From an uncultured Marinifilum sp. (GTDB taxonomy: Bacteria; Bacteroidota; Bacteroidia; Bacteroidales; Marinifilaceae): a DNA stretch of 64,000 nt. Shown in pieces: positions 6,517 to 25,270 of this stretch. Position 1 is the first letter of the stretch. Each line of letters starts with the position of its first letter. The translations under genes and the position numbers were made by a program. The stretch is taken from contig NZ_OY781918.1 in assembly GCF_963677195.1 (NCBI RefSeq), positions 1,972,923 to 2,036,922 of the forward strand, written 5' to 3'. The notes below the pieces were generated by a model, which was not told the origin of the DNA, made no database searches, and saw only the letters and a program-made list of their open reading frames with translations.

Positions 6517-6532
6517 AAATGCATTGAGTGTT

Positions 6533-7129: not shown

Positions 7130-7266
7130 AAATGTATAGATTTTATAATATCCCATCAGAAACAAAAGCAGTTGTATTTAATGAGCTGAGATCAAAAGTC
7201 GGATTACCTCCCTATGCCATCGTAAAAGACTGGTGGGTAGTGTAAACCCTGGCCATTATCTTCGAA

Positions 7267-8169
7267 ATGGAAATCGGAAAACATCTGGTATTTAAAGGAG
7301 GGACATCTCTTAGTAAGTCCTGGAATTTGATCGAACGATTTTCCGAAGATATCGACCTGGCAGTTGACAGAAGTTTTCTTGGATTTGAAGGAGAGCTCAC
7401 CCGCAAGAAAGAAATCACGAAACTACGCAAAGAATCCAATCGCTACATATCCGAAGTTTTCTTCCCGGAATTAACACAAAAATTTCAGGAAAAAGGCCTG
7501 ACAAATGTTGAATTAAAATTGGTAGAAGCCAAAGATTCCGATCAGGATCCGCGCATCATAGAAATCTATTATCCCAATGTAGTGGATTCTCCGGGTTACA
7601 TCCAACCCAGAGTTCAGGTTGAAATAGGTTGCAGATCATTAAAAGAACCATTTTCTCAATGTGCCATTTCATCTTTTGTCGATGAGCATTATCCCGATGC
7701 ACCATTTGCTCAGGATAAAGTAAGCATTCCAACCGTTAATCCGGAGCGAACCTTACTTGAGAAAATATTTTTACTGCATGAAGAATTCCAAAGACCACTG
7801 GAAAAAATCAGAGTCGATCGTTTAAGTCGTCACCTTTACGATGTTTACCAGCTGTCGCAAACCGAATTTGCAGAAAAGGCAATCGCCGATAAAGATTTGT
7901 ATGAAACAATCGTAAACCACCGGTACCGATTTGCCAAATTGGGAGGAGTAGATTACAATCTGCATCAACCTCAAAGCATCAGTATAATACCAATTTCGGA
8001 AATGATTGATGCTTGGAAAAAAGACTATATAACAATGCAGGAACAAATGATTTATGGAGAATCGCCATCTTTTGAGGAATTGATCAGCCAACTCCAAAAA
8101 TTCACACAACAGATCAATGAAATTGACTGGGTAATTCGTGGCGAATTTAAGCCTATTGTAAAGCAATAA
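7267..8169 (+). CDS. abiEii: AbiEii-like nucleotidyltransferase toxin, N-terminus cut off by an in-frame stop
   Basis: The full frame begins at ATG 7132 (MYRFYNIPSETKAVV), 2 bp after the antitoxin gene. It meets TAA at 7243-7245 (codon 38, context WVV-stop-TLAIIFEME) and continues in the same frame to 8169. The remaining open part starts at ATG 7267 and has 300 residues. It carries the nucleotidyltransferase signature: GGTS at residues 11-14 and the SEDIDL acidic pair (Asp28, Asp30). A single C-to-T change (CAA to TAA) would explain the stop. The original gene of 345 codons would be a normal AbiEii. Whether the shortened form is made or active is unknown, because it lacks the N-terminal helices that precede the active site. 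Confidence 0.8.
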   Translation: MEIGKHLVFKGGTSLSKSWNLIERFSEDIDLAVDRSFLGFEGELTRKKEITKLRKESNRYISEVFFPELTQKFQEKGLTNVELKLVEAKDSDQDPRIIEIYYPNVVDSPGYIQPRVQVEIGCRSLKEPFSQCAISSFVDEHYPDAPFAQDKVSIPTVNPERTLLEKIFLLHEEFQRPLEKIRVDRLSRHLYDVYQLSQTEFAEKAIADKDLYETIVNHRYRFAKLGGVDYNLHQPQSISIIPISEMIDAWKKDYITMQEQMIYGESPSFEELISQLQKFTQQINEIDWVIRGEFKPIVKQ

Positions 8170-9610: not shown

Positions 9611-10653
9611 ATGCGAATCCAGAGTTAAAAAACAATAAAAAAAGTTTGTTAAATCCTTGATTATCAGTGGAGTATATTTGTTTAAATCCTTGAAAATCAG
9701 TATCTTGAGGTCAGTTTCGAAGTGACAATTAGATATGATTTCCAAGGATAAAGACGACAAGTTAATAAGAATTTACTTTTTGGTTTGCGAAAAGTTTGAA
9801 GAACTTCAATTTTATTGTGAAAGATTCAGTAATAACAGTAAACCTGAATTTACCGATCAAGAAATTATGACCATTTATTTATACTGTATGCACTATGAAG
9901 AGCATATAAAAGTAAAACAAATTCACCGTTTTGCTTCTGACTGGTTGAGATCATGGTTTCCAAAGTTAGTAGGCTATAAAGCCTTTAATAACAGACTTAA
10001 TAAACTAAGTGGAGCTTTTGCCCGGTTAGTTGAAATACTTTTGTCAGACTATCAGCCGGAAGATTGTTGTCTGGATCAAAGTTTATTGGACTCAATGCCA
10101 ATTATTACCTGTTCAGGCAAACGTTCTGGAAAAGTTGCAACAGAAATAACAGATAAAGGATTCTGCTCGACAAAAGGTATTTATTATTATGGTATGAAAC
10201 TGCATTTATTGGGTTTCAGACGTATTGGTAAATTGCCACATCCTGAGCAAATACTATTTACTCCTGCTTCTGTTAATGATGTTAATGTTTTTAAAGAAGC
10301 ATGGTCAGGTATTGAGAACAGAACATTTTTTGGCGATAAAATATACTTTATTAATGAGCTTAACCAGAATATGTTGAAACATCAAAACTCTCAGACTCTT
10401 GCTCCAATCAAAGGGGTAAAAGGAATGCCAGATGTAATAAAACAGAGAATTAAAGCTGCCGATGATTTATTCTCAACGGCAGTATCTAGAATTAGGCAAC
10501 CTGTTGAGGCAATATTCAATTGGTTAATTGAAAAAACAGATATTCAAAAAGCTAGTAAAGTCAGATCTACAAAAGGATTAATGATACATACTTTTGGCAG
10601 GTTAGCTGCTGCTTTCATTGCATTAGCACTTTAGATCAACTCTGGATTCGCAT
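9611..10653 (+). mobile_element. Complete IS982-family insertion sequence (1043 bp)
   Basis: Perfect 16-bp terminal inverted repeats (ATGCGAATCCAGAGTT at 9611-9626, its complement at 10638-10653) enclose one intact transposase gene. A direct repeat TACTC flanks both ends (9606-9610 and 10654-10658), consistent with a target duplication. Between the left repeat and the gene are two near-identical repeats of about 22 bp (about 9648-9669 and 9679-9701, core AAATCCTTGA..ATCAGT), which may belong to the transposase promoter. Size, repeat length and transposase type fit the IS982 family. The 260 bp to the left (9349-9610) hold no gene. Confidence 0.9.
9735..10634 (+). CDS. IS982-family transposase
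   Basis: The 299-residue DDE transposase has an N-terminal helical DNA-binding part (ELQFYCERFSNNSKPEF, then EIMTIYLYCMHYEEH). The catalytic region has LDQSLLDSMPIITC (first Asp), ITDKGFCSTKGIYYYGMKLH (a typical IS982 block), FFGDKIYF (second Asp) and RQPVEAIFNWL (Glu). The length is normal for the family. The frame is uninterrupted and lies between perfect inverted repeats, so the element may still be active. It occupies most of the element and ends 19 bp before its right end. Confidence 0.92.
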   Translation: MISKDKDDKLIRIYFLVCEKFEELQFYCERFSNNSKPEFTDQEIMTIYLYCMHYEEHIKVKQIHRFASDWLRSWFPKLVGYKAFNNRLNKLSGAFARLVEILLSDYQPEDCCLDQSLLDSMPIITCSGKRSGKVATEITDKGFCSTKGIYYYGMKLHLLGFRRIGKLPHPEQILFTPASVNDVNVFKEAWSGIENRTFFGDKIYFINELNQNMLKHQNSQTLAPIKGVKGMPDVIKQRIKAADDLFSTAVSRIRQPVEAIFNWLIEKTDIQKASKVRSTKGLMIHTFGRLAAAFIALAL

Positions 10654-12234: not shown

Positions 12235-13368
12235 ATGTCGAATTCAAAATCTATTTATCTGGATTATGCAGCTTCTACTCCCGTTGTAGAGGAAGTGCTT
12301 AGTGCAATAATACCATATTTTACAACGATATATAGTAACCCTTCAAATGAAATAAATGCTGTGGGTCAAACGGCAACTAATGCAGTAAAAAAAGCTCAAG
12401 AGCAAATTAAGGATTTACTAAATGCTTGGGATTACGAAATAGTATTTACGAGTGGAGCAACCGAATCGATAAACACAGCGTTAAAAAGTCTGTTTACATT
12501 AGCTGGGGGTAAAAAAAATAAAATTATCACTTGCAAAACTGAGCATAAGGCTGTTTTGTCAGTTTGTGAGTATTTAGAAACTATTGGTGCAGAAATTGAA
12601 TACCTACCTGTCGATATTAATGGCAATATTTCTTTAGAGAATTTAAAAAATATTATAACAAAAGAAACTCTTGCCGTAGTTTTAATGTCGGTAAATAATG
12701 AAGCAGGTATTATTCATGATATTGATGGTATATCCAAAATTTGCCAAGAGAAATCTGTAAGATTTCTTTGTGATGCAACACAAGCTGTAGGAAAATTACC
12801 TTTGAACTTAACCGAAATTCCGGTAGATTATTTAATTTTTTCAGGCCATAAAATATATGCTCCAAAAGGAGTAGGTGTATTATTGATTCGAAAGGATGAA
12901 AAGCTAATCCCTTTGATACATGGAGGAGGCCAACAAGCAAATTTAAGATCAGGAACATTAAATGTCCCTGGTATTGTTGGTGTCGGAAAAGCTGCAGAGC
13001 TTTTGAAAGGAAAGATAGTTTCTGAATTTGTTAGAATTACTAAATTACAAAAGGAATTTGAAAAAGGCTTACTAAAAACTGGAAAGGTTTCGATAATTTC
13101 TAGGGATACAAATAGATCTCCATATATCTCAAATATTCACTTCTTAAGTAATGAAAGTGAGGAAATTATTTTTCCACTTAAAGATAAATTGTTTTTCTCC
13201 ACTGGATCTGCTTGTACAACGCAAATAATTGAAACTTCTCATGTATTAAGGGAAATGGGAATGAAATCAGAAGAAGCAGGAAATTGTTTAAGATTTAGTT
13301 TTGGTATATCAACGACTGCAGAGGAAATAAATCAAGCATTAACCCTATTAAAAAGTATTATCGAGTGA
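12235..13368 (+). CDS. sspA: Cysteine desulfurase SspA/DndA-type
   Basis: The 377-residue protein is a PLP-dependent IscS/NifS-type enzyme. It starts with the typical IYLDYAASTPV. The PLP lysine is Lys206 in SGHKIYAPKG. The sulfur-carrying cysteine is Cys327 in STGSACTTQ, on the mobile loop. IscS-family enzymes take sulfur from cysteine and pass it on as persulfide. There are no iron-sulfur assembly genes (iscU, sufB) nearby. Instead the gene heads an operon with a PLD-helicase and a DndD-like ATPase and faces sspBCD. I therefore assign it as the sulfur donor for DNA phosphorothioation. Its stop overlaps the next gene's ATG (TGATG at 13366-13370). Confidence 0.85.
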   Translation: MSNSKSIYLDYAASTPVVEEVLSAIIPYFTTIYSNPSNEINAVGQTATNAVKKAQEQIKDLLNAWDYEIVFTSGATESINTALKSLFTLAGGKKNKIITCKTEHKAVLSVCEYLETIGAEIEYLPVDINGNISLENLKNIITKETLAVVLMSVNNEAGIIHDIDGISKICQEKSVRFLCDATQAVGKLPLNLTEIPVDYLIFSGHKIYAPKGVGVLLIRKDEKLIPLIHGGGQQANLRSGTLNVPGIVGVGKAAELLKGKIVSEFVRITKLQKEFEKGLLKTGKVSIISRDTNRSPYISNIHFLSNESEEIIFPLKDKLFFSTGSACTTQIIETSHVLREMGMKSEEAGNCLRFSFGISTTAEEINQALTLLKSIIE

Positions 13369-15596
13369 TGTGCAATCTAAAATCCATAAATTATCCTAAA
13401 TCAAAAGAGTATTCTTCGGGAACTACTCATGAACCGATCGGATTTTATTTAGATGCACTTTCAAATAGCAAACACTTCGATTTATTATTAGGATATTTTA
13501 GTTCAAGTGCAATTAATATTTTAGCTTATGGTTTTACAAAGTTTTTAGCCAATGGCGGGCACATGCGTATGGCAATAAATCAATTTCTTCGAAAAGAAGA
13601 TAAAGAAGCAATTGTGAATGGGCTCGTCCAGGAACCAGGAGAATTTTACGGAAAACAATTATCCTTAACCGAAATCAAAAATCACCTTTCCGAAACTGGA
13701 AAGCACTTTTTTAATTGTATTGCCTGGTTAATAGCAGAGAAAAGAATTGAAGTCAAAATCATAAAACCCAAAGGAAGTCCGGGAATTGCTCATTACAAAT
13801 CAGGAATCTTTTCCGATGAGAACAATCAAATTCTTTTCAAAGGCTCATGCAATTTTACGGCAAATGCTCTATTTAATAATTTGGAAGAAATCGGAGTAAA
13901 ATTATCTTGGGATGATTCCGATCACTTTGCAATACAAGAAAACCAAGAAAAGTTCGATGATATTTTCTCAGAAGAAGCAGACTATATAGAATATTTGGAT
14001 GCTTCTGAAATTGAAGAGGTGATTTTAAATGAGTTTGGTGATAAAGATTTGAGTGATTTGATTAAAGATGAATTGGTTCTTTCTCAAAAAGAAGATCTTC
14101 TTTCAAAAACATCTGGCCGGACTAAAATGAAATTCCAAAAATTAGAAAAGGAACTTTTTAAGTTAGAAAACTCTCCTCGTTTTCCATACCCTTCTGGACC
14201 TCGCGATTATCAGGCAGAAGCTTATGAAAATTGGGTAAAAAATTCTCATTCGGGAATTTTTGATATGGCAACAGGAACAGGAAAAACGATAACGTCCTTA
14301 AATTGTCTTTTAGAAGAGTTTAATAGATCTGGTAAGTTTGACGCTTTAATTTTAGTTCCATCTATAGCTTTATTAAATCAATGGGAACAGGAATGTGCTA
14401 AATTCAACTTCAATAATGTAATAAAAATTGGGGGTGGTAATAAATGGGAGCAAGCTCTTTCTGATTATTTCTTCAGAAAATCTATGGGACAAAACTATTC
14501 AGCTATTATAATTAGTACTTATAATTCATTTACAACAAAAAAATTCCGTAAGTATTTGCCTCAATTAGATGGGATTTTAATAGCAGATGAAGCTCACAAT
14601 ATGGGCAGTAAATCAATTTTAAAAGTATTGCCTGAACTAATATGTGAGAAAAAAATTGGTTTGTCTGCAACATTAGAAAGACAATACGATGAATATGGAA
14701 ATGAGAAAATAAGAGGTTTTTTTAATTCTTATCCTCCATATACATTCAGCTATACAATGCAGGAAGCTATTGAAAATGGTGTGCTTTGTGAGTATTTTTA
14801 CTTTCCGCATCTTGTTTATCTAACAGAACAAGAATTGGAAGAATATGAAAAAATTTCAAAACAATTATCCAAATATTACAACCAGGATAATGATACCTAT
14901 TCAAAAAACGAAATAGTTGAAATATTACTGCAAAAACGTAAGAGAATAATTCATAAAGCGCAAAATAAACTTTCAAAATTCAAGCAAGTTGTCGCTAAAG
15001 AATATGAAAAAAGAGGTAACCTTAAAAATTCTTTAGTATATGCTCCGGAAGGGGATATTGATTTTGATATTGTAGATGAACCGGAATTTCATACAAACAT
15101 TTTAAACCAATTTACTAAGGTGGTTCGAGATGTAAATAGAAGAATGACAGTATCTCAATATACATCTAATACGAAGAATCGATCTAGAATACTACAAAAA
15201 TTCTCAGGTGGAGATATTCAAGTTCTAACATCAATGAAATGTTTGGATGAAGGTGTAGATATTCCACAAACTGAATTGGCATTCTTTTGTGCAAGTACAG
15301 GGAATCCAAAACAATTTATCCAGCGTAGAGGGAGAGTTTTAAGGCAATCTGAAGGCAAAACTTTTGCTACAATCCACGATTTAATTGTAGTGCCAAACCT
15401 AACAAATGAATACAATGCCAACTTTAGAATGCAACAAAGCATAGTACGCAAGGAATTGGAACGTGTAGTCAATTTTTCATTTTTGGCAATTAATAAGTAT
15501 CACACATTCGAGGAGCTTGATGAATTATGCAACCACTATAAATTAAACTTATTCAACATCAATAATACTATCAATAATAATGACAAGAAAAGATAA
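13368..15596 (+). CDS. PLD-nuclease / DEAD-like helicase fusion, phosphorothioate-linked restriction factor
   Basis: The product has about 742 residues (ATG 13368; an overlapping GTG at 13365 is possible). The N-terminal domain has a phospholipase D-type nuclease half-site: His143 and Lys145 in AHYKSGIFSD, then FKGSCNFTANAL. One HKD motif per chain is normal for dimeric PLD nucleases. The remainder is an SF2 helicase: Walker A ATGTGKT with Lys307, DEAH-type box at 408-411 (IADEAHN), and the C-terminal motif QRRGRVLRQ near 653-661. Helicases of this kind occur beside phosphorothioation genes. The position between sspA and a DndD-like ATPase points to detection or cutting of unmodified DNA; the activity is inferred. 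It may correspond to one of the SspFGH proteins, which I cannot verify. Confidence 0.8.
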   Translation: MCNLKSINYPKSKEYSSGTTHEPIGFYLDALSNSKHFDLLLGYFSSSAINILAYGFTKFLANGGHMRMAINQFLRKEDKEAIVNGLVQEPGEFYGKQLSLTEIKNHLSETGKHFFNCIAWLIAEKRIEVKIIKPKGSPGIAHYKSGIFSDENNQILFKGSCNFTANALFNNLEEIGVKLSWDDSDHFAIQENQEKFDDIFSEEADYIEYLDASEIEEVILNEFGDKDLSDLIKDELVLSQKEDLLSKTSGRTKMKFQKLEKELFKLENSPRFPYPSGPRDYQAEAYENWVKNSHSGIFDMATGTGKTITSLNCLLEEFNRSGKFDALILVPSIALLNQWEQECAKFNFNNVIKIGGGNKWEQALSDYFFRKSMGQNYSAIIISTYNSFTTKKFRKYLPQLDGILIADEAHNMGSKSILKVLPELICEKKIGLSATLERQYDEYGNEKIRGFFNSYPPYTFSYTMQEAIENGVLCEYFYFPHLVYLTEQELEEYEKISKQLSKYYNQDNDTYSKNEIVEILLQKRKRIIHKAQNKLSKFKQVVAKEYEKRGNLKNSLVYAPEGDIDFDIVDEPEFHTNILNQFTKVVRDVNRRMTVSQYTSNTKNRSRILQKFSGGDIQVLTSMKCLDEGVDIPQTELAFFCASTGNPKQFIQRRGRVLRQSEGKTFATIHDLIVVPNLTNEYNANFRMQQSIVRKELERVVNFSFLAINKYHTFEELDELCNHYKLNLFNINNTINNNDKKR

Positions 15597-15795
15597 AATC
15601 CTTCAAAAAATGTTAGCTCACCCTTTAATTAGGGAGAAGTACAATTGTGACAATTTAGAAAATGTCGAGGTACATGGTCCCGGTACAAATAACTTAATGA
15701 TTGAGTCGATCAGGACAATGATCAAAGAGGTAGAGGTACATAAAAAAGGGAAAGATGAGGTGGCAGCTACATTATTAAGAATGCTAAACGATTAG
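15580..15795 (+). CDS. Small protein of the ssp operon, unknown function
   Basis: The protein has 71 residues and starts at ATG 15580, inside the last 17 bp of the helicase gene. It ends 2 bp before the SMC-like gene. The tight packing on both sides argues for a real, translationally coupled gene. The sequence has a basic N-terminal helix (MTRKDKILQKMLAHPLI), a short central strand region (NVEVHGPGTNNLMIE) and a C-terminal helix ending DEVAATLLRMLND. I recognise no family. It could be the small middle member of a three- or four-protein restriction complex. Confidence 0.75.
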   Translation: MTRKDKILQKMLAHPLIREKYNCDNLENVEVHGPGTNNLMIESIRTMIKEVEVHKKGKDEVAATLLRMLND

Positions 15796-15797
15796 AG

Positions 15798-17960
15798 ATG
15801 GTTATAAAAGAAATAGAGTTGGTGAATTTTCAGTGCTATTTCGGTACTAAAGTTTTTTCATTCACCAAAGGATTAAATATTATCCTGGGTGCAAATGCGC
15901 ACGGAAAAAGTAAATTGTTTGATGGGATTAATTGGCTATTGAATGGTAATGTAGTCGATATTGAGAATCTTATATCAGAAAAGGCTAAAGCTACAAAAAG
16001 TAATTTCGAAGTGGCGGTAAGGTTAACTTGTGAACAAAACGGCATAAATTACTGTATTGAACGTTATTTTGATGTTGATATTATTGGAAATAAAACAGAA
16101 TGTTCACATCCGAAATGTTTGGGTTATGTGGATAATGAAGATGGTAGTAGAGATACAGTTGATGGTGAGGAGTTATTGGATAGTTTGTTCCCTCCGGTAT
16201 TAAGAAAGTACTCGCTTTTCAAGGGAGAGCGTGAATTGAATGTTTTCGATCCTACATCAAATAAAGATGCCTTATTAAATTTAGTAAATGCTCTTTCTGA
16301 TTTTAGAACTTTAGATGCTTATGTGGAGATTGCCAAGGAAGCATATCTGAGACACAATAAAGTTCTTGATAGTAAGGCTAGAAAGAACAAAAACGAACAA
16401 AGAAAATACGATCGTTTAGTAAAAGATAGAGATCATTATCAGTTTCAAATTAAGAAGTTTTCTGATGCCAATAAAGCTTTTAATGAAGATCTTTTTCAGA
16501 TTAGAAAAAGAAGAGAGGACAATTTAGCTTTTATTGAAACGGGTCCTCAGTTGGAAAAAGTAAACAGTAAGATATTTAATCAAGAAAAAGAAAGAAGTCA
16601 ATATCAATATAATTTGTCTACTAAAACAAATTTTACTGTTGATCTGTTTGATGAAAAATGGCTATTGATGTCTTTCAATGAAATTCAGGATGCTTTTGAT
16701 AAAAAAGTTGGTTCTTTAAGTAAAAAAAAGAGAAGATTGACTAAAGAATTCGATGAAAAACAAGGTGCAATAAAAGGTAAAAAGCAATTAATTGAGGATT
16801 TAACTAAAACGCAAACGCCTCTTCCTGTTGGTACTCCATCTAAAGAGATAATGGAAGAGATGCTCGAGGAGGAAATTTGTAAAGTATGCAATAGAGAAGC
16901 TCCCAAAGGTTCTGAAGCCTATGAGTATATGCAAAAAAGGTTGAAAGAATTTTTACAGCATATTCAACCTGAATTAGAGGAAGTTGAAGAAGAGCAAGCA
17001 TTCAAAAATGAATTCATTGAAGAGCTGAGGGCTTTGAGTCTGGAAATGACAAAAAAGAGAAGCAAAACCAGTGATGAAACAATTCAAAAAGAAATTAATG
17101 AGACTTATGAATTGATCGATTTGTTGAGAACTCGAATTCACGAAAAGGATATTGCAATTAATGATCTTGAAAAAGAGAGAGAAAAAATTCTTAGTAAAAG
17201 TACTGCTGGAGAAGAAACAATTTTAGAAGCAGCAAATTCAATTAGGCAGTATGATTATGAAATTCCCCGTATAGAAGCCAAAGTATTTCAGAACAGAGAA
17301 AAGGTTAAAAATTTTGAAGAGGAACTAAGAAAAACTCAGGAAGCAATTGATAAAATCAATTTTGAAGAAGGTTTGCAATCCGAAAATTTGAAGACTTTAA
17401 TTTTGCGAGATCTAAAAATAATCACACAGGAAGTCAAAGAGGAAATTTTTGATGATTTTATTAATGATCTGGAAACAAAATCAAATCATTATTATCGAAA
17501 ATTTGGAGAGGCTAGTTCTGGCTTCACAGGTCAGATTAAAATTCATCGCATAAGTGATACCAATAATATTCAAATCAAAACAATTGATAATTCCTCGGAT
17601 AGAGATATTACGCATACGCTGAGTAGCTCAACTTTAACATCAGTGAATATTTCCATTTTGATGGCAATTTCCGATCTGTCTATTAAGAATTCTGGTCAAG
17701 CATTACCTATGATTTTTGATGCTCCAACATCTGAATTCGACCTCCTTAAATCAATTGAGTTCTATAAGCTTTGTCGTGAAAATTTTGAACAAAGTATTAT
17801 CATGACTAAGGACTTTTTGGAAGACTTAGGGGATAGGAAATTTTTAGTAGGCGAAAACTTTAAGAAAATAAGCAAGGACAAAGCCTTTTGGGTAAAGCTG
17901 GATGAGAGTATCAATCCGGAAGAAATGCAATCTGTAGAATCTCAAATTATTAATTTGTAG
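15798..17960 (+). CDS. DndD/SMC/Rad50-like ATPase of the phosphorothioate system
   Basis: The 720-residue protein has an ABC-ATPase head at each end joined by a long coiled coil. Walker A is GANAHGKS at 31-38. A CxxC zinc-hook-like pair lies in the middle (Cys361 and Cys364, EICKVCNRE). The signature region is LSSSTLTSV (about 610-620), and Walker B is MIFDAPTSEFD (Asp641). This is the architecture of DndD and Rad50. DndD itself belongs to double-strand Dnd modification, yet no dndB, dndE or other dnd partner lies here. A role in the restriction half is more likely. It is separated by 2 bp from the preceding gene and 4 bp from the next one. Confidence 0.8.
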   Translation: MVIKEIELVNFQCYFGTKVFSFTKGLNIILGANAHGKSKLFDGINWLLNGNVVDIENLISEKAKATKSNFEVAVRLTCEQNGINYCIERYFDVDIIGNKTECSHPKCLGYVDNEDGSRDTVDGEELLDSLFPPVLRKYSLFKGERELNVFDPTSNKDALLNLVNALSDFRTLDAYVEIAKEAYLRHNKVLDSKARKNKNEQRKYDRLVKDRDHYQFQIKKFSDANKAFNEDLFQIRKRREDNLAFIETGPQLEKVNSKIFNQEKERSQYQYNLSTKTNFTVDLFDEKWLLMSFNEIQDAFDKKVGSLSKKKRRLTKEFDEKQGAIKGKKQLIEDLTKTQTPLPVGTPSKEIMEEMLEEEICKVCNREAPKGSEAYEYMQKRLKEFLQHIQPELEEVEEEQAFKNEFIEELRALSLEMTKKRSKTSDETIQKEINETYELIDLLRTRIHEKDIAINDLEKEREKILSKSTAGEETILEAANSIRQYDYEIPRIEAKVFQNREKVKNFEEELRKTQEAIDKINFEEGLQSENLKTLILRDLKIITQEVKEEIFDDFINDLETKSNHYYRKFGEASSGFTGQIKIHRISDTNNIQIKTIDNSSDRDITHTLSSSTLTSVNISILMAISDLSIKNSGQALPMIFDAPTSEFDLLKSIEFYKLCRENFEQSIIMTKDFLEDLGDRKFLVGENFKKISKDKAFWVKLDESINPEEMQSVESQIINL

Positions 17961-17964
17961 TAAA

Positions 17965-18498
17965 ATGGAAGAATTATTTGATAGGTGGGCTGCAGCAGCT
18001 CCTAAATACGATAAAATATTTGAACCTCTATTTAATAAATTGGCTAAAAAATTTGGTAGTTCAGAGGAGAAAAAAGAAGATTCTGGTAAAATATTTAATT
18101 CAAACTACGAATTATACATGTATGCATTCTTTCTAGGGTTATACAGAAACAAGCGAATTCCAATTGAAGGTGAGAAGATAGATTTTAGCCATGAAATTAA
18201 ACATTGGGGTAAAAAAGGTCGTCATGCCGATCGTAAAGATTACACCATCTTGCAGCGTTATATGTTCATGGCATTAGTTGCAAAAACTGACTTGGATTTT
18301 ATTGAGCTTGATAATGCTGAAGAAGTAGGTATTAAGAGAGCTGTATTGCAACTAAGAGCTGAATTCGCTGAATACACTAACACAGGCTTGTTAATTCTAC
18401 AAGAACAATATGAAACCGATAAACTGGCTTTTAATAATAAGAAGTGGTTTTTGGAGAAAATTCAACAGTATAATGCAGCGCTGATTGAAGAAAATTAA
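17965..18498 (+). CDS. Last gene of the ssp rightward operon, unknown function
   Basis: The protein has 177 residues and starts 4 bp after the SMC-like gene, so it is almost certainly cotranscribed and coupled. It has no signal peptide or membrane segment. The central part (NYELYMYAFFLGLYRNKRIP and HWGKKGRHADRKDYTILQRY) is rich in aromatic and basic residues and could contact DNA. This block resembles small proteins sometimes annotated as dnd-system associated. The flanking parts are helical. I cannot assign a family. Because it travels with the helicase and ATPase it may complete their complex. Confidence 0.75.
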   Translation: MEELFDRWAAAAPKYDKIFEPLFNKLAKKFGSSEEKKEDSGKIFNSNYELYMYAFFLGLYRNKRIPIEGEKIDFSHEIKHWGKKGRHADRKDYTILQRYMFMALVAKTDLDFIELDNAEEVGIKRAVLQLRAEFAEYTNTGLLILQEQYETDKLAFNNKKWFLEKIQQYNAALIEEN

Positions 18499-18671
18499 TC
18501 ATAAAAGGATTGTATTTAATGAATTTATTAAAAAAATCAAAAACCAAATAAGATGAACCTTGAAATATTTAATGAAATAAGAAGATATTATAAAATTTTG
18601 ATCCATTATTAGATTAGTTATATTCTAATGTTGAATTTGATTTAATGGCTAATGCTACATAATTTTAAGGT

Positions 18672-18694
18672 ATGGCTATCTACTTGATAGCCAT
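18672..18694. terminator. Hairpin between the convergent ssp operons
   Basis: A perfect 9-bp stem (ATGGCTATC at 18672-18680, GATAGCCAT at 18686-18694) with a 5-nt loop. It spans the stop codon of the leftward exonuclease gene. There is no long T run on either side, so it may slow transcription in both directions rather than terminate classically. Confidence 0.5.
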
Positions 18695-19216
18695 TAATCT
18701 CTTATACACCTCAAAAGTCAACCGTGCATCCTCAATCGCACTATGTTTCTCCCTTCTCTCCAAGTCAAATAAATCAACCAAATCACTCAATGATTTTTCC
18801 CTATCAGGCAAAATCCCTTTCTGCGATAGAAAATAAGAAATAGATTGCACATCGATATGTCGATGGTAAATTTTATTATACTCACGCATAAAATTGTTCA
18901 AATGGCACATTCTACGGAAAAATGAAACATCAAAATTAATATTCCAACCAGCAAAACGATAGTCTGTTCCAAATTCATCAAAAAATCGAACCAACATCTC
19001 CTTTTGCTTACAAGCATCAACTAAATTCGATTCATCTAATCCATGTATCGCTTTAGATTGTGCTGAAAACTTTCTTTTAGTTCTTAAGGACAAAAATGAA
19101 TGAAATTCTTTTATGATTTCATTTTCTTCATTCACTAACACTGCTCCAAACTCAATAGGATTATCCTTGAATACATCAATTCCAGTAGTTTCAAAATCTA
19201 TAAAACATATATTCAT
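18680..19216 (-). CDS. DnaQ-like 3'-5' exonuclease (DEDDh)
   Basis: The 178-residue single-domain exonuclease has all five residues of the DEDDh site: Asp7 and Glu9 in IDFETTG, Asp96 in GWNINFDVSFF, and His158 and Asp163 in HSAIEDAR. Such enzymes degrade single-stranded DNA or RNA from the 3' end. It is the last gene of the leftward ssp operon, 7 bp after the membrane-protein gene. That placement suggests a part in the defence unit, for example trimming nicked DNA, but exonucleases of this kind are also common housekeeping genes. A hairpin covers its stop codon. Confidence 0.85.
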   Translation of the reverse strand: MNICFIDFETTGIDVFKDNPIEFGAVLVNEENEIIKEFHSFLSLRTKRKFSAQSKAIHGLDESNLVDACKQKEMLVRFFDEFGTDYRFAGWNINFDVSFFRRMCHLNNFMREYNKIYHRHIDVQSISYFLSQKGILPDREKSLSDLVDLFDLERREKHSAIEDARLTFEVYKRLMAIK

Positions 19217-19223
19217 TTAATTA

Positions 19224-20003
19224 TTATATTTTATCAATTCCTCCATTCGACTTTCTCATTAAATCAAACTCTCCCAAAATCTTATTATAAATACCTTCTT
19301 TATTAATTGTTTTTTGAGCTTTTATTACTAAAGGTACCCATTCTTTAGATTCATACATTTTACTTGGAGAGAAATAGATTACATCATCACAAATGTAAAA
19401 AGAATAGTTGATTGGATATTTTAATATTTGGTACTTATTGAGCTTTCCATTTAATTCTCCTCTTTTCTTTAATTCACTTACTTTATGATCAAGAATTTCT
19501 TGTGATTCAGTGATTTTACTTTTAACCTTTAGTTTCCATAAGTCAGATAAATTATCTATAAATGGATTTTTTTTTGACAACATAAAAACATTAATCTCGG
19601 CATCCTTTTTTCGTAACAAACTATTTATTTCTTCAGATAAAGAGTTCAATAAAGAATATCCATAAGTAAAGTAAATTGTAACTTTTTGAGAATTCTGAAT
19701 TGATTTTTTAAGATCATATGTTGCTAGTTTAAAATTGCCATAATATTTAATAATACCTGAATCATTAAATGCATCTTTATGCTGCATAATAGCAAAATGT
19801 TCTTTCGAAAAATCTTCTTTCATTAAATTTTGAAAAAAAGCCCCTACTAAAAAACTTGCATAAACAGAAGTTCCAATTGAAATAGCAACAAGTAATAATT
19901 GGTTATCAGATCCAAAAATCCAAATGGAAAGAATTATCAATAAAATAACTACTAAAGTATAAACAGTTAATTTACAAGTGAAAATTTTTAAATAAGCATC
20001 CAT
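19224..20003 (-). CDS. Membrane-anchored protein of the ssp leftward operon, unknown function
   Basis: The 259-residue protein has two membrane helices near the N-terminus (about 12-30 and 36-57), then a soluble cytoplasmic domain of about 200 residues. The soluble part alternates strands and helices (VTIYFTYGYSLLNSLSEEI, AEINVFMLSKKNP, NYSFYICDDVIYFSP). This is reminiscent of degenerate PLD-like sensor domains, but no HKD residues are visible. It lies 23 bp after sspD and 7 bp before the exonuclease gene. A membrane protein is not part of the SspABCD or SspE sets that I know. It could be an abortive-infection effector or simply a passenger. Confidence 0.75.
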   Translation of the reverse strand: MDAYLKIFTCKLTVYTLVVILLIILSIWIFGSDNQLLLVAISIGTSVYASFLVGAFFQNLMKEDFSKEHFAIMQHKDAFNDSGIIKYYGNFKLATYDLKKSIQNSQKVTIYFTYGYSLLNSLSEEINSLLRKKDAEINVFMLSKKNPFIDNLSDLWKLKVKSKITESQEILDHKVSELKKRGELNGKLNKYQILKYPINYSFYICDDVIYFSPSKMYESKEWVPLVIKAQKTINKEGIYNKILGEFDLMRKSNGGIDKI

Positions 20004-20026
20004 ACTGTATAGGTTTAGATTTTATA

Positions 20027-21205
20027 CTATATAAAACAACTAGCACAACCATCACCTTCAGCATCCAACAACTCATCCAGCCAATTCGGATCAGCAGCAT
20101 TCTTCTCTTTCTTCACTCCCAAAATATCATCCTGCCAACTCGTTTTTGTTTGCAGATTCTCATAACGCTTCTTCATGCGCTTTAGGTGTTCTCTTTTAAT
20201 ACCAATCACACGATCAGGATGCGATAACTGTTCCAAGCTTTCACCCTGTATCCAGGTATAACCATCTTTCTCATATTTCATTGCCTCTTTAAATAAATCC
20301 GGATGCTGTTCCAGCAACCAAACCCATTCAATTTTCTGCTGGTAAAAACAGAAAAAGCAACCTGAACGACTTCGGAAATATTTTCCTTTTTCACCATCCA
20401 CCTCATACTCTCTTGGCAAATAGTAACTTGGTAAATCTACATTACTTTCCTCAATCAAATCAAAAATATCTTGTCTTACCAAAACATCATCATTTTCAAT
20501 CAAAGGAAAATAATCCAATTGTCCAACTGGATAATCAGTTGTTTTCAACCAATCAAAAACAACCTTATTAAATCCAATCACATTCACATCCAGTAAAGCA
20601 TCTAGCTTTTGTCTGATGGAGAAAAATGGAGAAATTTCTTGTTTTACAATTTCTAAAACTTTATCAAGTAAAGTATTATCTAAATGATTTTGATAATATC
20701 TCTCAATCTCAGCAATTTTTGAATTATGTAAGACCTTATTGATAACATCTACACTCCATATATTCCTTCTAAAAGGGAATATAGATTGTATATTAGACTT
20801 AGTAGAAATATATCCTTCTCTGTCTTCATCTCCTCGAATCCCCACATACGAAATTGCCGGACTGTCACCAATCGCAGCCTCAAAAGGAGCCAATTTTAAG
20901 TTTTTAGTACACCACCTTGCATTTTGCGCTGGAAGATAACCTCCATATTTTTTCCAGAAAAAATCAAATGGATTATCCTCGTTTGTACTTTGAAAATTCT
21001 TATCCTGGTATTTTTTTACAGAGACTTGTAACTCATGTTCCAATTGTTCTATTAAAACATAGGTCTCGGCTAATTCTCTACCTGTATCACATGTGTAATA
21101 CTCAATTGGCAATTCTTCCTTGCTATATATTTTATTCAGGTAAATGGCCAAAGCGGCACTATCTTTTCCACCACTAATTCCTAATACATGTTTAATTTCT
21201 GCCAT
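20027..21205 (-). CDS. sspD: SspD/DndC-like ATP pyrophosphatase (PAPS-reductase family)
   Basis: The 392-residue protein opens with the PP-loop motif SGGKDS at 11-16 and the PAPS-reductase block EYYTCDTGRELAETY. Further features are ARWCTKNLKLAPF and a cysteine pair SGCFFCFY (Cys283 and Cys286). A second pair lies at the very C-terminus (GCASCF, Cys387 and Cys390). Members of this group in phosphorothioation operons activate the DNA backbone by adenylation and insert sulfur delivered by the desulfurase. The ATG overlaps the TAA of sspC by one base (TAATG), so the two are coupled. The order sspB-sspC-sspD is as in known ssp clusters. Confidence 0.88.
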   Translation of the reverse strand: MAEIKHVLGISGGKDSAALAIYLNKIYSKEELPIEYYTCDTGRELAETYVLIEQLEHELQVSVKKYQDKNFQSTNEDNPFDFFWKKYGGYLPAQNARWCTKNLKLAPFEAAIGDSPAISYVGIRGDEDREGYISTKSNIQSIFPFRRNIWSVDVINKVLHNSKIAEIERYYQNHLDNTLLDKVLEIVKQEISPFFSIRQKLDALLDVNVIGFNKVVFDWLKTTDYPVGQLDYFPLIENDDVLVRQDIFDLIEESNVDLPSYYLPREYEVDGEKGKYFRSRSGCFFCFYQQKIEWVWLLEQHPDLFKEAMKYEKDGYTWIQGESLEQLSHPDRVIGIKREHLKRMKKRYENLQTKTSWQDDILGVKKEKNAADPNWLDELLDAEGDGCASCFI

Positions 21206-24200
21206 TAGATCAGTTCCTGTAATTTTTTTAATAATAAAGCTTTTCGTTCTTCAGGTTGAAGTTTCTGTATTAATTTTTCGACTTCATTTTCAGATTTTAA
21301 ATAATTTTCTGAAAATTCATGAGGAAAGATAATTCTTTCTTGTTTCACTTCTCCCGTTTGATCAATGATATCTACAGCATATACACTTTCATTCTTTCTA
21401 GTGTCATTTAGTTTGTGAATATCAACTAATCGTTCAAGTTGTTGAAATGATTTCTTGAATTTAGTAATAAAAATAGAAATTTCTTCATCTCTTATTTCGG
21501 AGAAATTCTTATTGAATAAGCTATTGTAAATACTTTTTATCCACTCACTTTTTTTCGAGCTAGGCAATCTGAATTTCTGTAACAGTCTCTTTAAGTGAGA
21601 GGGAATGATTTGTATGTCAATTTCATCGAATCGAGTTTCTAAATGATTTTTGTATTCTTTGTAAGATACATTCGATGCGCCAATAACTTTTTTAAACTTT
21701 TCTTCTACTTGCTCAATTAAATTCTGTTCACACTCTCTTAATTCCTTAATAACAGATTTAAGTTGTAAAGTGTAATCATCCAGATTAATGTTTTCATTCT
21801 TTAAATCAAGTCCGGAATATCCCAATGCTTTAGGAATGTCTTCAAAAAAAGCTGTTTCTGGATCTTGTGCTTTAGCAATTGCTTCTCTGAACAGTATTGC
21901 TTCAGCAGGTAAATTTTTTGTTCGTTTTGTGTAATTAGGCAATTCTCTGTAGAAAACAAATAATGGGCGTATGGTTTCAATATAAACCGATCTCTTTCCA
22001 TTTATTTCGTGATTCTTATTGATTAAAGTTCGATAAGTGTTAAGTAGGTTTAGCTTAATTCCTTCAACCGAAAATGTTTTAATATTATAATCTTTAGGGT
22101 TTTTTTGAATTAATTCAAAAACTTCTTCAGTTAAGAATGGTACGTATCCTTTACTATTGAATAAGGCAAAATTGTCTTGCTGAATATGTAAGAAAGTTGG
22201 TATCCAGAAAGAAAGGAAACCATTTTTTAACTTGAATGGAGCTACAGAGAATTCATTGTAAAATTCTTGTAGATTGATTTTTTCTTGTTTCGCACGGTTA
22301 AGGATTTCCATCGATTTTAACCACAACCCATAAAATACACCACTTTCATCAGGAGTTTCAAATTCCCATTTGCCTTCAGCGAAATGTTGATGTATTTGTG
22401 TGTCCTTTAGTAAGCTTAAATAAATTGTTTTTTCAGCTGGATATTTATTAGCTGCAAATCCTAAATCTTCTTGATCAGAATGATGAATCAATGCACGCAT
22501 ATAGTTTCTCCGGGCAGTTGCAATGGCCGGACTCACTTTATGTCTGTTGATAAGTTCGTTTCGTAGAATAGGTGTTTCGAAATAAACATCTTCACATATA
22601 CTCGATAATTCTCGATTTAATTCCCTTTGAGATTCAATCACAATATTTACACCATTGCGACACCAGCTGACATTCTCACTGGTTAAATTATTTAAAACCT
22701 CTTTTGTTAAATCATTTTCAAGTTTTTCCTTGAGTTTTTCAAGCTCTCTGCAAGCAACTCTATCTTCATGATTTTCGTTAATTACATATTCAGTCTTGTC
22801 TATTTCCCAAAGAATAGTTTTTATCTCTTCGGTTCTTCTAAACAGAGCGTAAAGGTTACTTGGGAAATTAACACTTGCTTCGTTGATTTTATCAGTTAAG
22901 TTTTGTTCTGAAAAAATTAAATTAATATATCCATCAAGTTCATCTTTTGCCTGTTGAAGGTAAGGTGTGTTTGAAATTTTGTAAGCAAAAAATCTTGGTG
23001 TTCCTCTTGTGTAACTAATCGATTTAGCTAATAAAACAGGTAACTGGTAATATTTTTCAATATCTCGTGAGATATCTTCTGATTTTGTAACCTTACTGCT
23101 AGCTTCAAGCATGGCCTTATCAAAATCCAAATCTGTTCCTTCAAAAAGAATAAATCTTTCAGAAAATTCTCTATATCGGATAATTTGTTTTTGCTCTAAC
23201 TGATGTAGAATGTTTTCAACTTTCTTTTTGTCATTTTCAAAGAAGTAGGCTAGTAATAAATTGTGATTTATTTTTCCTCCTTGTGAAGAGAAAATACTCA
23301 ATAAACCAATGGTTTTAACCAATTTTTCAGCGAGCCTAATATCTTTATTGAAACTAGCTTCTACTTTTTCTAAAGCTATTCTAATGGCATCCCATCCGTT
23401 TTTATCAGGATTACTACTGCTGATGATAGCTCCATAAAAGTTTTGAATTAAAAAGTCATAAACTTTACTCAAACTATACCACTTTGACTTTTTAGTAAAA
23501 TTATATAATGAGTTTGCCTCTTTTCTATTCAGGAAAGTAAATAGTGATCGTTCATTTTGTCCGTATGATTGTAAAGCACGTGTAAGACAATTAGCAGAAG
23601 CTAAATCCATTGGATATAATGCAGAAGCATATTCTAAATCATAATTGGCATAGTTTTTAATGATTTTAGAATCTAGGATTGCTTGATTGACAGATGAAAT
23701 TTCATCCAATTTATTTTTCTCAAACTTCCATTGTTTAATTCTTTCTCCGGCCAAATAAAGCAATTGTTCTATTGGCTCATTAAAAGTAATGTGAATAAAT
23801 CGACCGTTTACTTTTTGCCATTCATCTTGTTCTTTTCTATTTAGTCCGGTACCGTATTGAGAAAAGCTCTGATGTAATGAGGTCAGAAGAATAATATTGC
23901 GTTTAGGATCATTTACATATTCAGCTAGTTGCTGTATGAAATATATATTCTCCTCAACATCAACTTTTGAAGAGTATTCTAAAAATTTCCCATATTCATC
24001 AATAACAATGAATAAAAATTTATCCTCGCTCTTACATTTTAAATAATGTTTATCTAAAGCATTAAGTACATCTTTTCCATTGGAAGAATCAATGTTTAAT
24101 TGCTTAGCAAGGCTTTCTATTAAAGAAGAATAGGACCCAATTAGATTTATAAATTCGAAATTCTTGGCTCCGTTAAAATATTCTCCAGTATGGAAAAAGT

Positions 24201-24417
24201 ATTCTGTTTTTTGATTTAAATTTTGTTCTAAAGCCCAAATAAAGCTTGATTTTCCAGTGCCGTAAGAACCAATAATATTAAAACAGTGTCCTGTGCTTGT
24301 AAAACCAGATGCAATAGATTTAGCTACTTGCTCAGCATTTGGTGTAACGATATAATTTAAAGATAAATCCTTATCTCTGATAATATTGACAGAAGGTGAA
24401 TAGTTCTTGTTATCCAT
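21205..24417 (-). CDS. sspC: SspC-like large P-loop ATPase
   Basis: The protein has 1070 residues. The N-terminal AAA/STAND-like ATPase has Walker A GSYGTGKS at 50-57 and Walker B FLFIVIDEYG with Asp140 and Glu141. It is followed by ILLTSLHQSFSQY and a long helical region with no further motif that I know. A large ATPase of about 1000 residues between the DUF4007 nickase and the PAPS-reductase-like protein is the hallmark of SspC in single-strand phosphorothioate systems. It overlaps sspB by 8 bp at its start and sspD by 1 bp at its end. Assignment rests mainly on context and size. Confidence 0.85.
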   Translation of the reverse strand: MDNKNYSPSVNIIRDKDLSLNYIVTPNAEQVAKSIASGFTSTGHCFNIIGSYGTGKSSFIWALEQNLNQKTEYFFHTGEYFNGAKNFEFINLIGSYSSLIESLAKQLNIDSSNGKDVLNALDKHYLKCKSEDKFLFIVIDEYGKFLEYSSKVDVEENIYFIQQLAEYVNDPKRNIILLTSLHQSFSQYGTGLNRKEQDEWQKVNGRFIHITFNEPIEQLLYLAGERIKQWKFEKNKLDEISSVNQAILDSKIIKNYANYDLEYASALYPMDLASANCLTRALQSYGQNERSLFTFLNRKEANSLYNFTKKSKWYSLSKVYDFLIQNFYGAIISSSNPDKNGWDAIRIALEKVEASFNKDIRLAEKLVKTIGLLSIFSSQGGKINHNLLLAYFFENDKKKVENILHQLEQKQIIRYREFSERFILFEGTDLDFDKAMLEASSKVTKSEDISRDIEKYYQLPVLLAKSISYTRGTPRFFAYKISNTPYLQQAKDELDGYINLIFSEQNLTDKINEASVNFPSNLYALFRRTEEIKTILWEIDKTEYVINENHEDRVACRELEKLKEKLENDLTKEVLNNLTSENVSWCRNGVNIVIESQRELNRELSSICEDVYFETPILRNELINRHKVSPAIATARRNYMRALIHHSDQEDLGFAANKYPAEKTIYLSLLKDTQIHQHFAEGKWEFETPDESGVFYGLWLKSMEILNRAKQEKINLQEFYNEFSVAPFKLKNGFLSFWIPTFLHIQQDNFALFNSKGYVPFLTEEVFELIQKNPKDYNIKTFSVEGIKLNLLNTYRTLINKNHEINGKRSVYIETIRPLFVFYRELPNYTKRTKNLPAEAILFREAIAKAQDPETAFFEDIPKALGYSGLDLKNENINLDDYTLQLKSVIKELRECEQNLIEQVEEKFKKVIGASNVSYKEYKNHLETRFDEIDIQIIPSHLKRLLQKFRLPSSKKSEWIKSIYNSLFNKNFSEIRDEEISIFITKFKKSFQQLERLVDIHKLNDTRKNESVYAVDIIDQTGEVKQERIIFPHEFSENYLKSENEVEKLIQKLQPEERKALLLKKLQELI

Positions 24418-25270
24418 AATACTCTCCTAAAATTTCCCACTTATTTAGTGGCTGTTGAAACTGTAACTCTCTAACTCCTGAGTTTTCTGAAAAAACGATT
24501 GAGTCATACCTTTCCTCCAATCGTTTCAATTTTTTAATAACACCATGTTCTGTTATGCAGAATATTAGTGCAGGACTATTATTGGTTTTTAAAATATTTT
24601 CAACCGAAATAGAATTTTCTCCCTGAAATCTATCGAGTAAACAGTATAAGAAAAGTTCATCAGAAATTTCATCTCGATCAGTATTGTCTACAGCTATGTT
24701 TTTATTCGATTCAAATAAACGTAATTCTTGTAGTAAACCTATAAATTCATCTTCTATGTTTTTAGGGTTTTTAGGCTGCATGTAGTTAGCCTTAAAAACT
24801 TTAATGTCACTATCTAAAGTTTTATCACTTGGTCTTTCTTGATTGTGCTCTTCTGTTAGGTATATGAGTCCTTTCTTTATTCTTTCATCAGTGAATTCTC
24901 TGCTTCCATTTTTTAACTTATTAAAAAATAGATTGTAAATTGAAGCATATCCTTTTTTTACCAAATGATAATGCAATAGCCACAGTGAATTAGTATCTTC
25001 TAAAAAAGGATCAAATCCATTGTCTGAAAATATACAGTCTCCAAATTTACTAGTCAATTGATTATTTTCACCATCTTTGTTCTCATTAAGGATTCCGAAT
25101 GCTCGAATCCAAAATCGGATAGAGGTAACCATATTTTTCCCTACGCCTAGTTTTGTAACTGCATTATCATCACTAAATTTATTGCCTTCTTGTAGGAAAT
25201 CATAACCTTTTTTCAGCCAATAATGTCTGCAGTAAAAGGTTTCATGTCCCGAAAAAGTATATTTTGCCAT
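24410..25270 (-). CDS. sspB: SspB-like DUF4007 DNA nickase
   Basis: The 286-residue protein starts with the DUF4007 signature YTFSGHETFYCRHYWLKKG (residues 4-22), followed by KLGVGKNMVTSIRFWIRAFG. DUF4007 proteins in ssp clusters are reported as site-specific DNA-nicking enzymes needed for phosphorothioate modification. It is the first gene of the leftward operon and overlaps sspC by 8 bp. The C-terminal half (FCITEHGVIKKLKRLEER) looks like a winged-helix part. A palindrome lies 10 bp before its start codon and overlaps the probable promoter. Length and gene order agree with SspB. Confidence 0.88.
   Translation of the reverse strand: MAKYTFSGHETFYCRHYWLKKGYDFLQEGNKFSDDNAVTKLGVGKNMVTSIRFWIRAFGILNENKDGENNQLTSKFGDCIFSDNGFDPFLEDTNSLWLLHYHLVKKGYASIYNLFFNKLKNGSREFTDERIKKGLIYLTEEHNQERPSDKTLDSDIKVFKANYMQPKNPKNIEDEFIGLLQELRLFESNKNIAVDNTDRDEISDELFLYCLLDRFQGENSISVENILKTNNSPALIFCITEHGVIKKLKRLEERYDSIVFSENSGVRELQFQQPLNKWEILGEYYG

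What the first reader, a model, noticed from the sequence alone, without database searches (positions are those of the whole stretch)
12235..25270. Phosphorothioate (Ssp-type) defence island with two convergent operons and no SspE
The sequence shows a cysteine desulfurase, a PLD-helicase, a 71-aa protein, an SMC/DndD-like ATPase and a 177-aa protein in one coupled operon. A DUF4007 protein, a 1070-aa ATPase and a PAPS-reductase-like protein form the facing one. DUF4007 + large ATPase + PP-loop protein + desulfurase is the SspBCD/SspA set (single-strand DNA phosphorothioation, established for this family). No DUF262/GmrSD-type SspE is present. The rightward operon is therefore the likely restriction arm, perhaps related to the SspFGH type. 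The desulfurase sits with the restriction genes, not with sspBCD, which is unusual.
Basis: partly seen in the sequence, partly recalled or inferred. Interest (0 to 1): 0.85.

Follow-up and report, generated by a model that had tools for sequence, protein, structure and literature searches.

The report
Sulfur-DNA defence with swappable weapon slot
This stretch of a bacterial chromosome holds genes predicted to mark the cell's own DNA with sulfur beside genes that likely attack unmarked phage DNA, a pairing that recurs in distantly related microbes and has a neighbouring slot in which different relatives carry different genes that would act as extra weapons.

Summary
The rightward operon is sspA followed by PbeA, a PbeB-like 71-aa protein, a PbeC-like ATPase and a DndE-fold PbeD: a PbeABCD-type cassette, not SspFGH. 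A genome-wide search found no SspE-type (GmrSD_N) protein. PbeABCD was described with the Dnd modification genes; here it sits with Ssp. That pairing recurs: 7 of 10 PbeA-bearing genomes among 395 of the same phylum have SspC in the same locus (Fisher p = 6.5e-8); 34 of 76 PbeA loci have SspBCD neighbours, in three separate PbeA clades that include Bacillota and a Methanobrevibacter MAG. In seven relatives pbeA starts within 11 bp of the end of sspD. Directly 3' of sspD lies a slot whose content is uncorrelated with the SspD tree; four loci with SspD at least 95% identical carry four different cassettes. The passages I read do not describe an SspBCD-PbeABCD locus. Phosphorothioation and defence were not measured. 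Verdict: a new variant of a known kind.

The parts
12235..13368 (+). SspA/DndA-type cysteine desulfurase; PLP-lysine (SGHK) and catalytic-cysteine (GSAC) motifs present
   Evidence: PADLOC SspA 432 bits; motifs (motif roles recalled)
13365..15596 (+). PbeA: PLD/HKD nuclease domain + SF2 helicase
   Evidence: PADLOC PbeA 966 bits; ResIII 88 bits, PLDc_2 19 bits, the latter below its cut-off of 27; TIGR04095 415 bits, below its cut-off of 600; HxK...D...GSxN motif
15580..15795 (+). PbeB-like small protein, 71 aa
   Evidence: no hit above a cut-off; size and position as PbeB (66 aa, PMC6459918); a family HMM built here finds similar ORFs at the same place in relatives
15798..17960 (+). PbeC-like ABC ATPase with coiled coil; Walker A GANAHGKS; CxxC hook
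   Evidence: AAA_15 57 bits; LmuB 79 bits and PbeC 35 bits; hook CKVC
17965..18498 (+). PbeD, DndE-fold protein
18499..18679 (.). 181-bp gap between the convergent operons
18680..19216 (-). DEDDh (DnaQ-type) exonuclease homologue; second gene of the sspD-3' cassette
   Evidence: RNase_T 82 bits; PolC-type exonuclease 2p1j 50 bits; DxE, D and H...D motifs by eye in the translation
19224..20003 (-). 259-aa protein with two likely N-terminal membrane helices; first gene of the sspD-3' cassette
   Evidence: no family hit above a cut-off; three further members found among 5.8 billion proteins, one of them the protein beside SspBCD-PbeABC in G218; low-confidence AF2 helices 3-29 and 34-61; no membrane predictor was run
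20027..21205 (-). SspD: PP-loop/PAPS-reductase-like sulfurtransferase, SGGKDS motif
   Evidence: PADLOC SspD 275 bits; motif
21205..24417 (-). SspC: large ATPase
   Evidence: PADLOC SspC 1155 bits, BrxC 237 bits
24410..25270 (-). SspB: DUF4007 protein
   Evidence: PF13182 262 bits; PADLOC SspB 299 bits

Best explanation
The locus encodes SspB, SspC, SspD and SspA homologues, predicted to write phosphorothioate marks on host DNA, facing a PbeABCD-type cassette that is likely the restriction arm gated by those marks, plus a two-gene membrane-protein/exonuclease cassette that would act as an exchangeable extra effector. Predicted steps: SspA takes sulfur from cysteine; SspD carries it; SspB and SspC choose and open the target so that one strand is marked. 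PbeA (HKD nuclease plus SF2 helicase), with the PbeC ATPase, the DndE-fold PbeD and the small PbeB, would scan DNA and block or cut DNA lacking the mark. The DEDDh exonuclease, perhaps tethered by the two-helix protein, would digest nicked unmarked DNA; phosphorothioate bonds resist many 3'-5' exonucleases (recalled), so the mark itself could shield host DNA. Shown here: gene identities, gene order, recurrence of the pairing, and different cassettes on near-identical backbones. Inferred: phosphorothioation, single-strand marking, gating, phage defence, and the role of the extra cassette.
For: HMM identities of the Ssp genes and PbeA; DndE fold of PbeD. Co-occurrence: of 395 genomes of the same phylum, SspC in 22, PbeA in 10, both in 7, always in one locus (Fisher p = 6.5e-8). 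PbeA tree of 76 rows: 34 SspBCD-linked (window included), 19 Dnd-linked, 23 neither; the SspBCD label needs 6 changes against 25.3 when shuffled (0 of 500 as low), in three clades. A sample of 398 genomes of the phylum of L091 (Clostridiaceae): 23 with PbeA, 12 of them beside SspBCD counting L091's own genome, 1 beside Dnd, 10 neither in the flank. Near-fusions: pbeA starts 1-11 bp after the last base of sspD in L065, L066, L067, L069, L070 and L177 and overlaps it by 13 bp in L073; in L066, L067, L069, L070 and L177 sspB, sspC and sspD are all present. sspA directly upstream of pbeA in 21 of 21 SspBCD-linked loci that have it.
Against: No phosphorothioate measurement exists for this organism. 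The ATPase scores better with LmuB (79 bits) than PbeC (35 bits), and its hook is CxxC, not the CxC that named the family. PbeD is below its curated cut-off. PbeABCD was characterised with double-strand Dnd marks (PMC6459918), so its use of Ssp marks is unproven. 23 of 76 PbeA loci show neither writer in the fetched flank, and 15 of 22 SspC-bearing genomes of the phylum sample show no PbeA at the thresholds used. The extra cassette has no tested function, and its model is poor (pLDDT 55).
Confidence: 0.72

Rival explanations
1. Two independent defence systems lie side by side in a defence island: an SspBCD writer using its own 3' cassette, and a PbeABCD cassette working alone or with another modification.
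For: Defence genes cluster; an AbiE pair lies 4 kb away. PbeABCD occurs without either writer in the fetched flank in 23 of 76 loci. PMC6459918 reports 320 of 553 PbeAC without dndCD (passages).
Against: Co-location 7 of 10; three stable PbeA clades; pbeA within 11 bp of sspD in seven loci; sspA, a sulfur donor, is the gene before pbeA in 21 of 21 SspBCD-linked loci that have it.
Confidence: 0.17
2. The rightward operon is an SspFGH-type or SspE-substitute restriction arm.
For: It stands where SspE or SspFGH would be expected, and SspE is absent.
Against: No SspF/G/H model and no FtsK/HerA-type domain among the hits (I did not verify that the library holds SspF/G/H models); PbeA at 966 bits; DndE fold of the fourth gene. 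SspF and SspH are described as a Walker-A protein and an FtsK-like protein (PMC8092258).
Confidence: 0.02
3. The rightward operon is a Lamassu-like SMC system, judged by the LmuB match of its ATPase.
For: LmuB 79 bits against PbeC 35 bits.
Against: Neighbours are PbeA and a DndE-fold protein; no LmuA-type model was among the hits to the ten proteins; related ATPases with the same kind of CxxC hook stand in Dnd-linked PbeA loci (L055, L056, L076, L077).
Confidence: 0.03
4. The membrane-protein/exonuclease pair is the actual effector of this SspBCD, and PbeABCD is a passenger.
For: It is in the sspBCD operon; near-identical SspD backbones carry different cassettes there.
Against: In L066, L067, L069, L070 and L177 sspBCD runs straight into pbeA with no cassette between, so PbeABCD can pair with SspBCD without one.
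Confidence: 0.06

Closest known systems
DndCDEA-PbeABCD (Haloterrigena jeotgali; PMC6459918, passages)
   Same: Four-gene PbeABCD cassette with PLD-helicase, small protein, SMC-like ATPase and small fourth protein (a DndE cognate according to PMC10853773), beside phosphorothioation genes
   Different: Writer here is SspBCD + SspA, not DndCDE; CxxC hook in PbeC; an extra two-gene cassette in the writer operon
SspABCD-SspE
   Same: SspA, B, C, D writer
   Different: No SspE or any GmrSD_N protein found in the genome; PbeABCD in its place
SspABCD-SspFGH (Vibrio anguillarum; PMC8092258, passages)
   Same: SspBCD writer with a multi-gene restriction arm
   Different: No SspF/G/H match; PbeABCD instead
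CxC ABC ATPase-DndE systems with variable boundary nucleases (PMC10853773, sections 16 and 17 and passages)
   Same: HKD-SF2, small protein, ABC ATPase, DndE cognate; standalone nucleases near the writer read there as backup effectors
   Different: That survey treats Dnd neighbourhoods; in the parts read Ssp appears only as a separate variant
BREX type 4 (brxPCZL), named as a phosphorothioate writer in PMC11931770 (passages)
   Same: SspC resembles BrxC (237 bits); in the two loci scanned by PADLOC (L091, L103) the SspD slot holds a BrxP-like PP-loop protein (280 and 262 bits)
   Different: SspB, SspA and Pbe genes present; I did not search for PglZ or BrxL

Membership tests
Ssp phosphorothioation (SspABCD) | SspB (DUF4007), SspC, SspD (PP-loop), SspA homologues in one locus | tested here: met
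   motifs
Ssp phosphorothioation (SspABCD) | Phosphorothioate in DNA, single-stranded, at a fixed motif | not testable with these tools
   needs iodine cleavage or LC-MS
SspABCD-SspE | SspE (GmrSD_N/DUF262 nickase) | tested here: not met
   0 PF03235 matches in the whole genome; control rings in 8 of 14
SspABCD-SspFGH | SspH with FtsK/SpoIIIE-like end, SspF, SspG | tested here: not met
   no FtsK-type domain and no SspF/G/H hit among ten proteins; presence of SspF/G/H models in the library not verified; the rest of the genome not searched for them
PbeABCD | PbeA: PLD domain + Res/helicase | tested here: met
   PADLOC PbeA 966 bits, ResIII 88 bits, PLDc_2 19 bits (below cut-off); HKD-type residues
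PbeABCD | Small PbeB between PbeA and PbeC | tested here: met
   71-aa ORF in that place; related ORFs in relatives by a family HMM built here
PbeABCD | PbeC: ABC ATPase with coiled coil | tested here: met
   AAA_15 57 bits; PbeC 35 bits, LmuB 79 bits
CxC ABC ATPase clade (strict) | CxC hook at the coiled-coil apex | tested here: not met
   CKVC, i.e. CxxC; not filed in the strict CxC clade, but as a PbeABCD-type cassette
PbeABCD | PbeD: DndE cognate | tested here: met
PbeABCD | Phosphorothioate-dependent block of virus replication | not testable with these tools
   needs phage plating
Lamassu (LmuB) | LmuB with LmuA-type effector | tested here: not met
   LmuB-like ATPase only; no LmuA model among the hits to the ten proteins

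The most novel reading that the evidence does not exclude
SspBCD is a plug-in writer with a fixed cassette-exchange slot at the sspD stop codon: whole effector cassettes (membrane protein + DEDDh exonuclease, membrane protein + deoxyribosyltransferase-like, DndB-like + GIY-YIG, GmrSD_N + kinase or SIR2, HNH + HIT, GHKL sets, an AAA triple) are swapped in and out by recombination over sspD, while a slower-changing main arm (PbeABCD, or an unnamed ~815-aa GHKL protein that replaces it) is kept. The window's pair is a new phosphorothioate-gated exonuclease arm that uses the nuclease resistance of the mark itself to tell self from phage.
Probability: 0.3. Interest if true: 0.8.

Novelty: new variant of a known kind. 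Interest (0 to 1): 0.62.

Why it matters
Two published puzzles may be halves of one answer. PMC6459918 left 320 of 553 PbeAC without dndCD. PMC8092258 found 2,211 of 2,678 sspBCD (83.9% as printed) without sspFGH or sspE and asked whether more diversified restriction counterparts pair with SspBCD. Here PbeABCD and SspBCD are shown to travel together in several lineages, so part of both orphan sets likely belong to each other, which is directly testable. If the sspD-3' slot is an effector-exchange site, it is also a place to look for further, unnamed anti-phage effectors.

Tried and rejected
SspFGH reading: rejected. Structure of the 259-aa protein: AF2 on three sequences gave pLDDT 55, so no fold search was run with it; its profile against the PDB gave only weak rows of unlike proteins, best E 0.009; a second, profile-based database search added one member, which proved to be the G218 protein already fetched. 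A ~120-bp stretch 89-93% alike in L030, L072 and L075 at the far end of the cassette looked like a possible recombination site, but it did not align with the corresponding stretch of G324, L059, L179 or the window; dropped. NAR gkaa726, the earlier ABC-ATPase survey, is not held, so it may already show this pairing; the SspE discovery paper (Nat Microbiol 2020) was not looked up.

The PbeA tree left out L161 (333-aa truncated PbeA) and duplicate or partial loci. Partner labels there were automatic: the SspD model had drifted to include DndC, and the two were told apart by a DndD-like neighbour; some loci called 'neither' are at contig ends or may have a Dnd set (L121, and L221). The SspD tree left out L035 and L071 (no SspD), the divergent L036/L060/L061 set, L063, and duplicates (L159 repeats L064). 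Cassette and main-arm labels were assigned by hand. Both trees are quick ones with SH-aLRT support only. The Bacillota-type sample was drawn with one PbeA from an SspBCD-linked locus, so its 12 of 23 leans towards that lineage; the 80 loci lean towards the window's PbeA in the same way. ORF starts in relatives are the first possible start codon, so short gaps are approximate.

Full report
WHAT IS THERE. The window is bases 1,972,923-2,036,922 of a 4.80-Mb single-contig genome. Ten ORFs form two convergent operons. Rightward: SspA (432 bits), PbeA (966 bits), a 71-aa protein, an ABC ATPase (LmuB 79, PbeC 35 bits) and a 177-aa protein (TIGR04062, 25.5 bits, below cut-off).

THE PAIRING RECURS. 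In one sample of 395 genomes of the phylum, SspC was found in 22 and PbeA in 10 (the same sample, judged by size and shared handles); 7 have both, always in one locus with at most about 9 kb between them (Fisher p = 6.5e-8). In the PbeA tree of 76 rows, 34 (window included) have SspBCD neighbours, 19 Dnd, 23 neither in the fetched flank (two of these, L063 and L073, lie near contig ends; L073 has SspD next to PbeA). The SspBCD label needs 6 changes against 25.3 shuffled (0 of 500 as low). It falls into a Bacteroidota clade (20 rows, 18 labelled, SH-aLRT 96), a mostly Bacillota clade that includes a Fusobacteriaceae MAG, an Acholeplasmatales MAG and a Methanobrevibacter MAG (15 rows, 14 labelled, 97), and L060/L061 (100). 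In L091 (Clostridiaceae) PADLOC finds SspB (219 bits), SspC (455), SspA (148), PbeA (831) and PbeC (375); of the three proteins tested in L103 (Methanobrevibacter) it finds SspB (195) and SspA (127). In both, the SspD place is taken by a BrxP-like PP-loop protein (280 and 262 bits). In a separate sample of 398 genomes of L091's phylum, 23 have PbeA: SspBCD stands beside it in 12 (11 of the 22 fetched here plus L091's own), Dnd in 1, neither in 10.

OPERON EVIDENCE. In L065, L066, L067, L069, L070 and L177 pbeA starts 1-11 bp after the last base of sspD, and in L073 it overlaps by 13 bp. L066, L067, L069, L070 and L177 have sspB, sspC and sspD complete in front; in L065 SspB is cut to 149 aa and no SspC was found, and the L073 contig starts within sspD. 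Where an SspA match occurs in an SspBCD-linked PbeA locus, it is directly upstream of pbeA in 21 of 21; 12 of the 33 loci lack one nearby. In Dnd-linked loci with room upstream, 10 of 17 have an SspA-type gene and in 2 it is directly upstream. The window's arrangement is therefore ordinary for this pairing.

THE SLOT AFTER sspD. In 39 SspBCD loci, clustering of the ORFs that follow sspD gave recurring sets (domains, tested on single members): DndB-like + GIY-YIG-like in 8 (DndB 111 bits; GIY-YIG 21.4 bits, just below its cut-off of 22.6; on the opposite strand in four); deoxyribosyltransferase-like + a protein that looks membrane-bound by eye in 4; GmrSD_N-like in 4, with a kinase-type partner in three and SIR2 in one; an HNH set in 3, whose HNH protein also matches that of L065; an AAA-like triple in 3; GHKL sets in 8 (two clusters); and the window's pair in one of the 39 (L030, genome G218; identities to the window 32% and 51%). 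Ten loci had no cassette there (nine none, L068 a 125-aa ORF only); of these, L065 carries an insert before sspD and L036/L061 carry GHKL genes after the Pbe genes. On the SspD tree (36 rows) cassette type needs 24 changes against 25.1 shuffled (as low in 60 of 200), so it is not distinguishable from random placement. The main arm needs 5 changes against 9.5 (0 of 300 as low). Four loci (L030, L162/G324, L072, L075) have SspD 95-98% identical but four different cassettes. DNA similarity stops within about 15 bp of the sspD stop codon. Identity rises towards that point for L030 against G324 (75% to 90%) and G324 against L072 (78% to 89%), is roughly flat or slightly rising for L030 against L072 and against L075, and falls for L072 against L075 (96% to 89%), so the gradient is not general. 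I read the pattern as cassette replacement by homologous recombination over sspD; that is inference.

AN ALTERNATIVE MAIN ARM. Among 23 SspC-anchored loci of the window's SspC branch (the 13 phylum-sample hits at E 3e-146 or better, window included, plus 10 more from the order sample), 10 carry PbeABCD, 7 carry an ORF of about 815 aa (508 aa in L035) with a GHKL-type ATPase match in the member tested (28 bits; no PADLOC hit), none carries both, and 6 carry neither (chance of no overlap 0.007). Some of these contigs end inside the flank (G817, G908). Four of the six (L025, L026, L029, L032) have a GHKL + helicase set instead, with a PLD-like gene in three.

THE WINDOW'S CASSETTE. The 259-aa family is rare: besides the window's own protein, three members were found among 5.8 billion proteins, one of them the G218 protein (100% over 236 aa). 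In G218 it is again followed by the exonuclease gene; the context of the other two was not available. I propose a membrane-tethered exonuclease arm; this is inference.

LITERATURE. Searches for SspBCD with PbeABCD (1 paper), PbeA with SspB (7 papers), SspABCD with PbeABCD (9 papers) and a five-term search (3 papers) gave papers of which I read passages: PMC8053081, PMC7464106, PMC12707154, PMC10853773, PMC9239217, PMC7461809, PMC11676413, PMC9646914, PMC9239176 and PMC11662687; also PMC11931770. They list PbeABCD among restriction partners of phosphorothioation or beside SspABCD; none of the passages describes one locus with SspBCD and PbeABCD. PMC9239176 names SspE, PbeABCD and SspFGH together as partners of DndABCDE. 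Supplementary tables and subscription papers were not available.

SCORE. Gene identities are firm; the pairing is well supported; biochemical function is inferred from homologues. New variant of a known kind, interest 0.62.

Noticed in passing
window 6464-8169 (+): AbiEi (232 bits) and AbiEii (310 bits) toxin-antitoxin homologues 4 kb before sspA. ORFs that look similar by eye stand directly before sspB in L161 and L175 (not tested).
   Followed up: partly
window 9735-10634 (+): DDE transposase of an insertion sequence; a ~1.05-kb stretch here has at least six more copies at 99-100% identity in the genome.
   Followed up: partly
L182:4321-6774, L027, L028, L034, L035, L174, L178: An ORF of about 815 aa (508 aa in L035), on the strand opposite to sspD, in seven SspBCD loci where no PbeABCD was found; one member tested has a weak GHKL ATPase match and no PADLOC family. 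A candidate unnamed phosphorothioate effector.
   Followed up: partly
L062:7613-8848 and seven other loci: A DndB-like gene paired with a GIY-YIG-like gene next to SspBCD, although DndB is known as a partner of Dnd.
   Followed up: partly
L161:9706-10707: PbeA cut to 333 aa beside sspBCD and a DndB/GIY-YIG cassette, with PbeB-D not seen: a decaying copy.
   Followed up: no
L091 and L103: SspD place filled by a BrxP-like PP-loop protein in an SspB-SspC-SspA-Pbe locus: a bridge between Ssp and BREX type 4.
   Followed up: partly
L030:13543-13664; also in L072 and L075: A ~120-bp stretch 89-93% alike at the far end of the cassette, more alike than the neighbouring pbe genes.
   Followed up: partly
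sspD 3' end in L030, L162, L072, L075 and window 20027: The last ~22 bases of sspD are nearly the same in all five, right at the cassette boundary (window).
   Followed up: no
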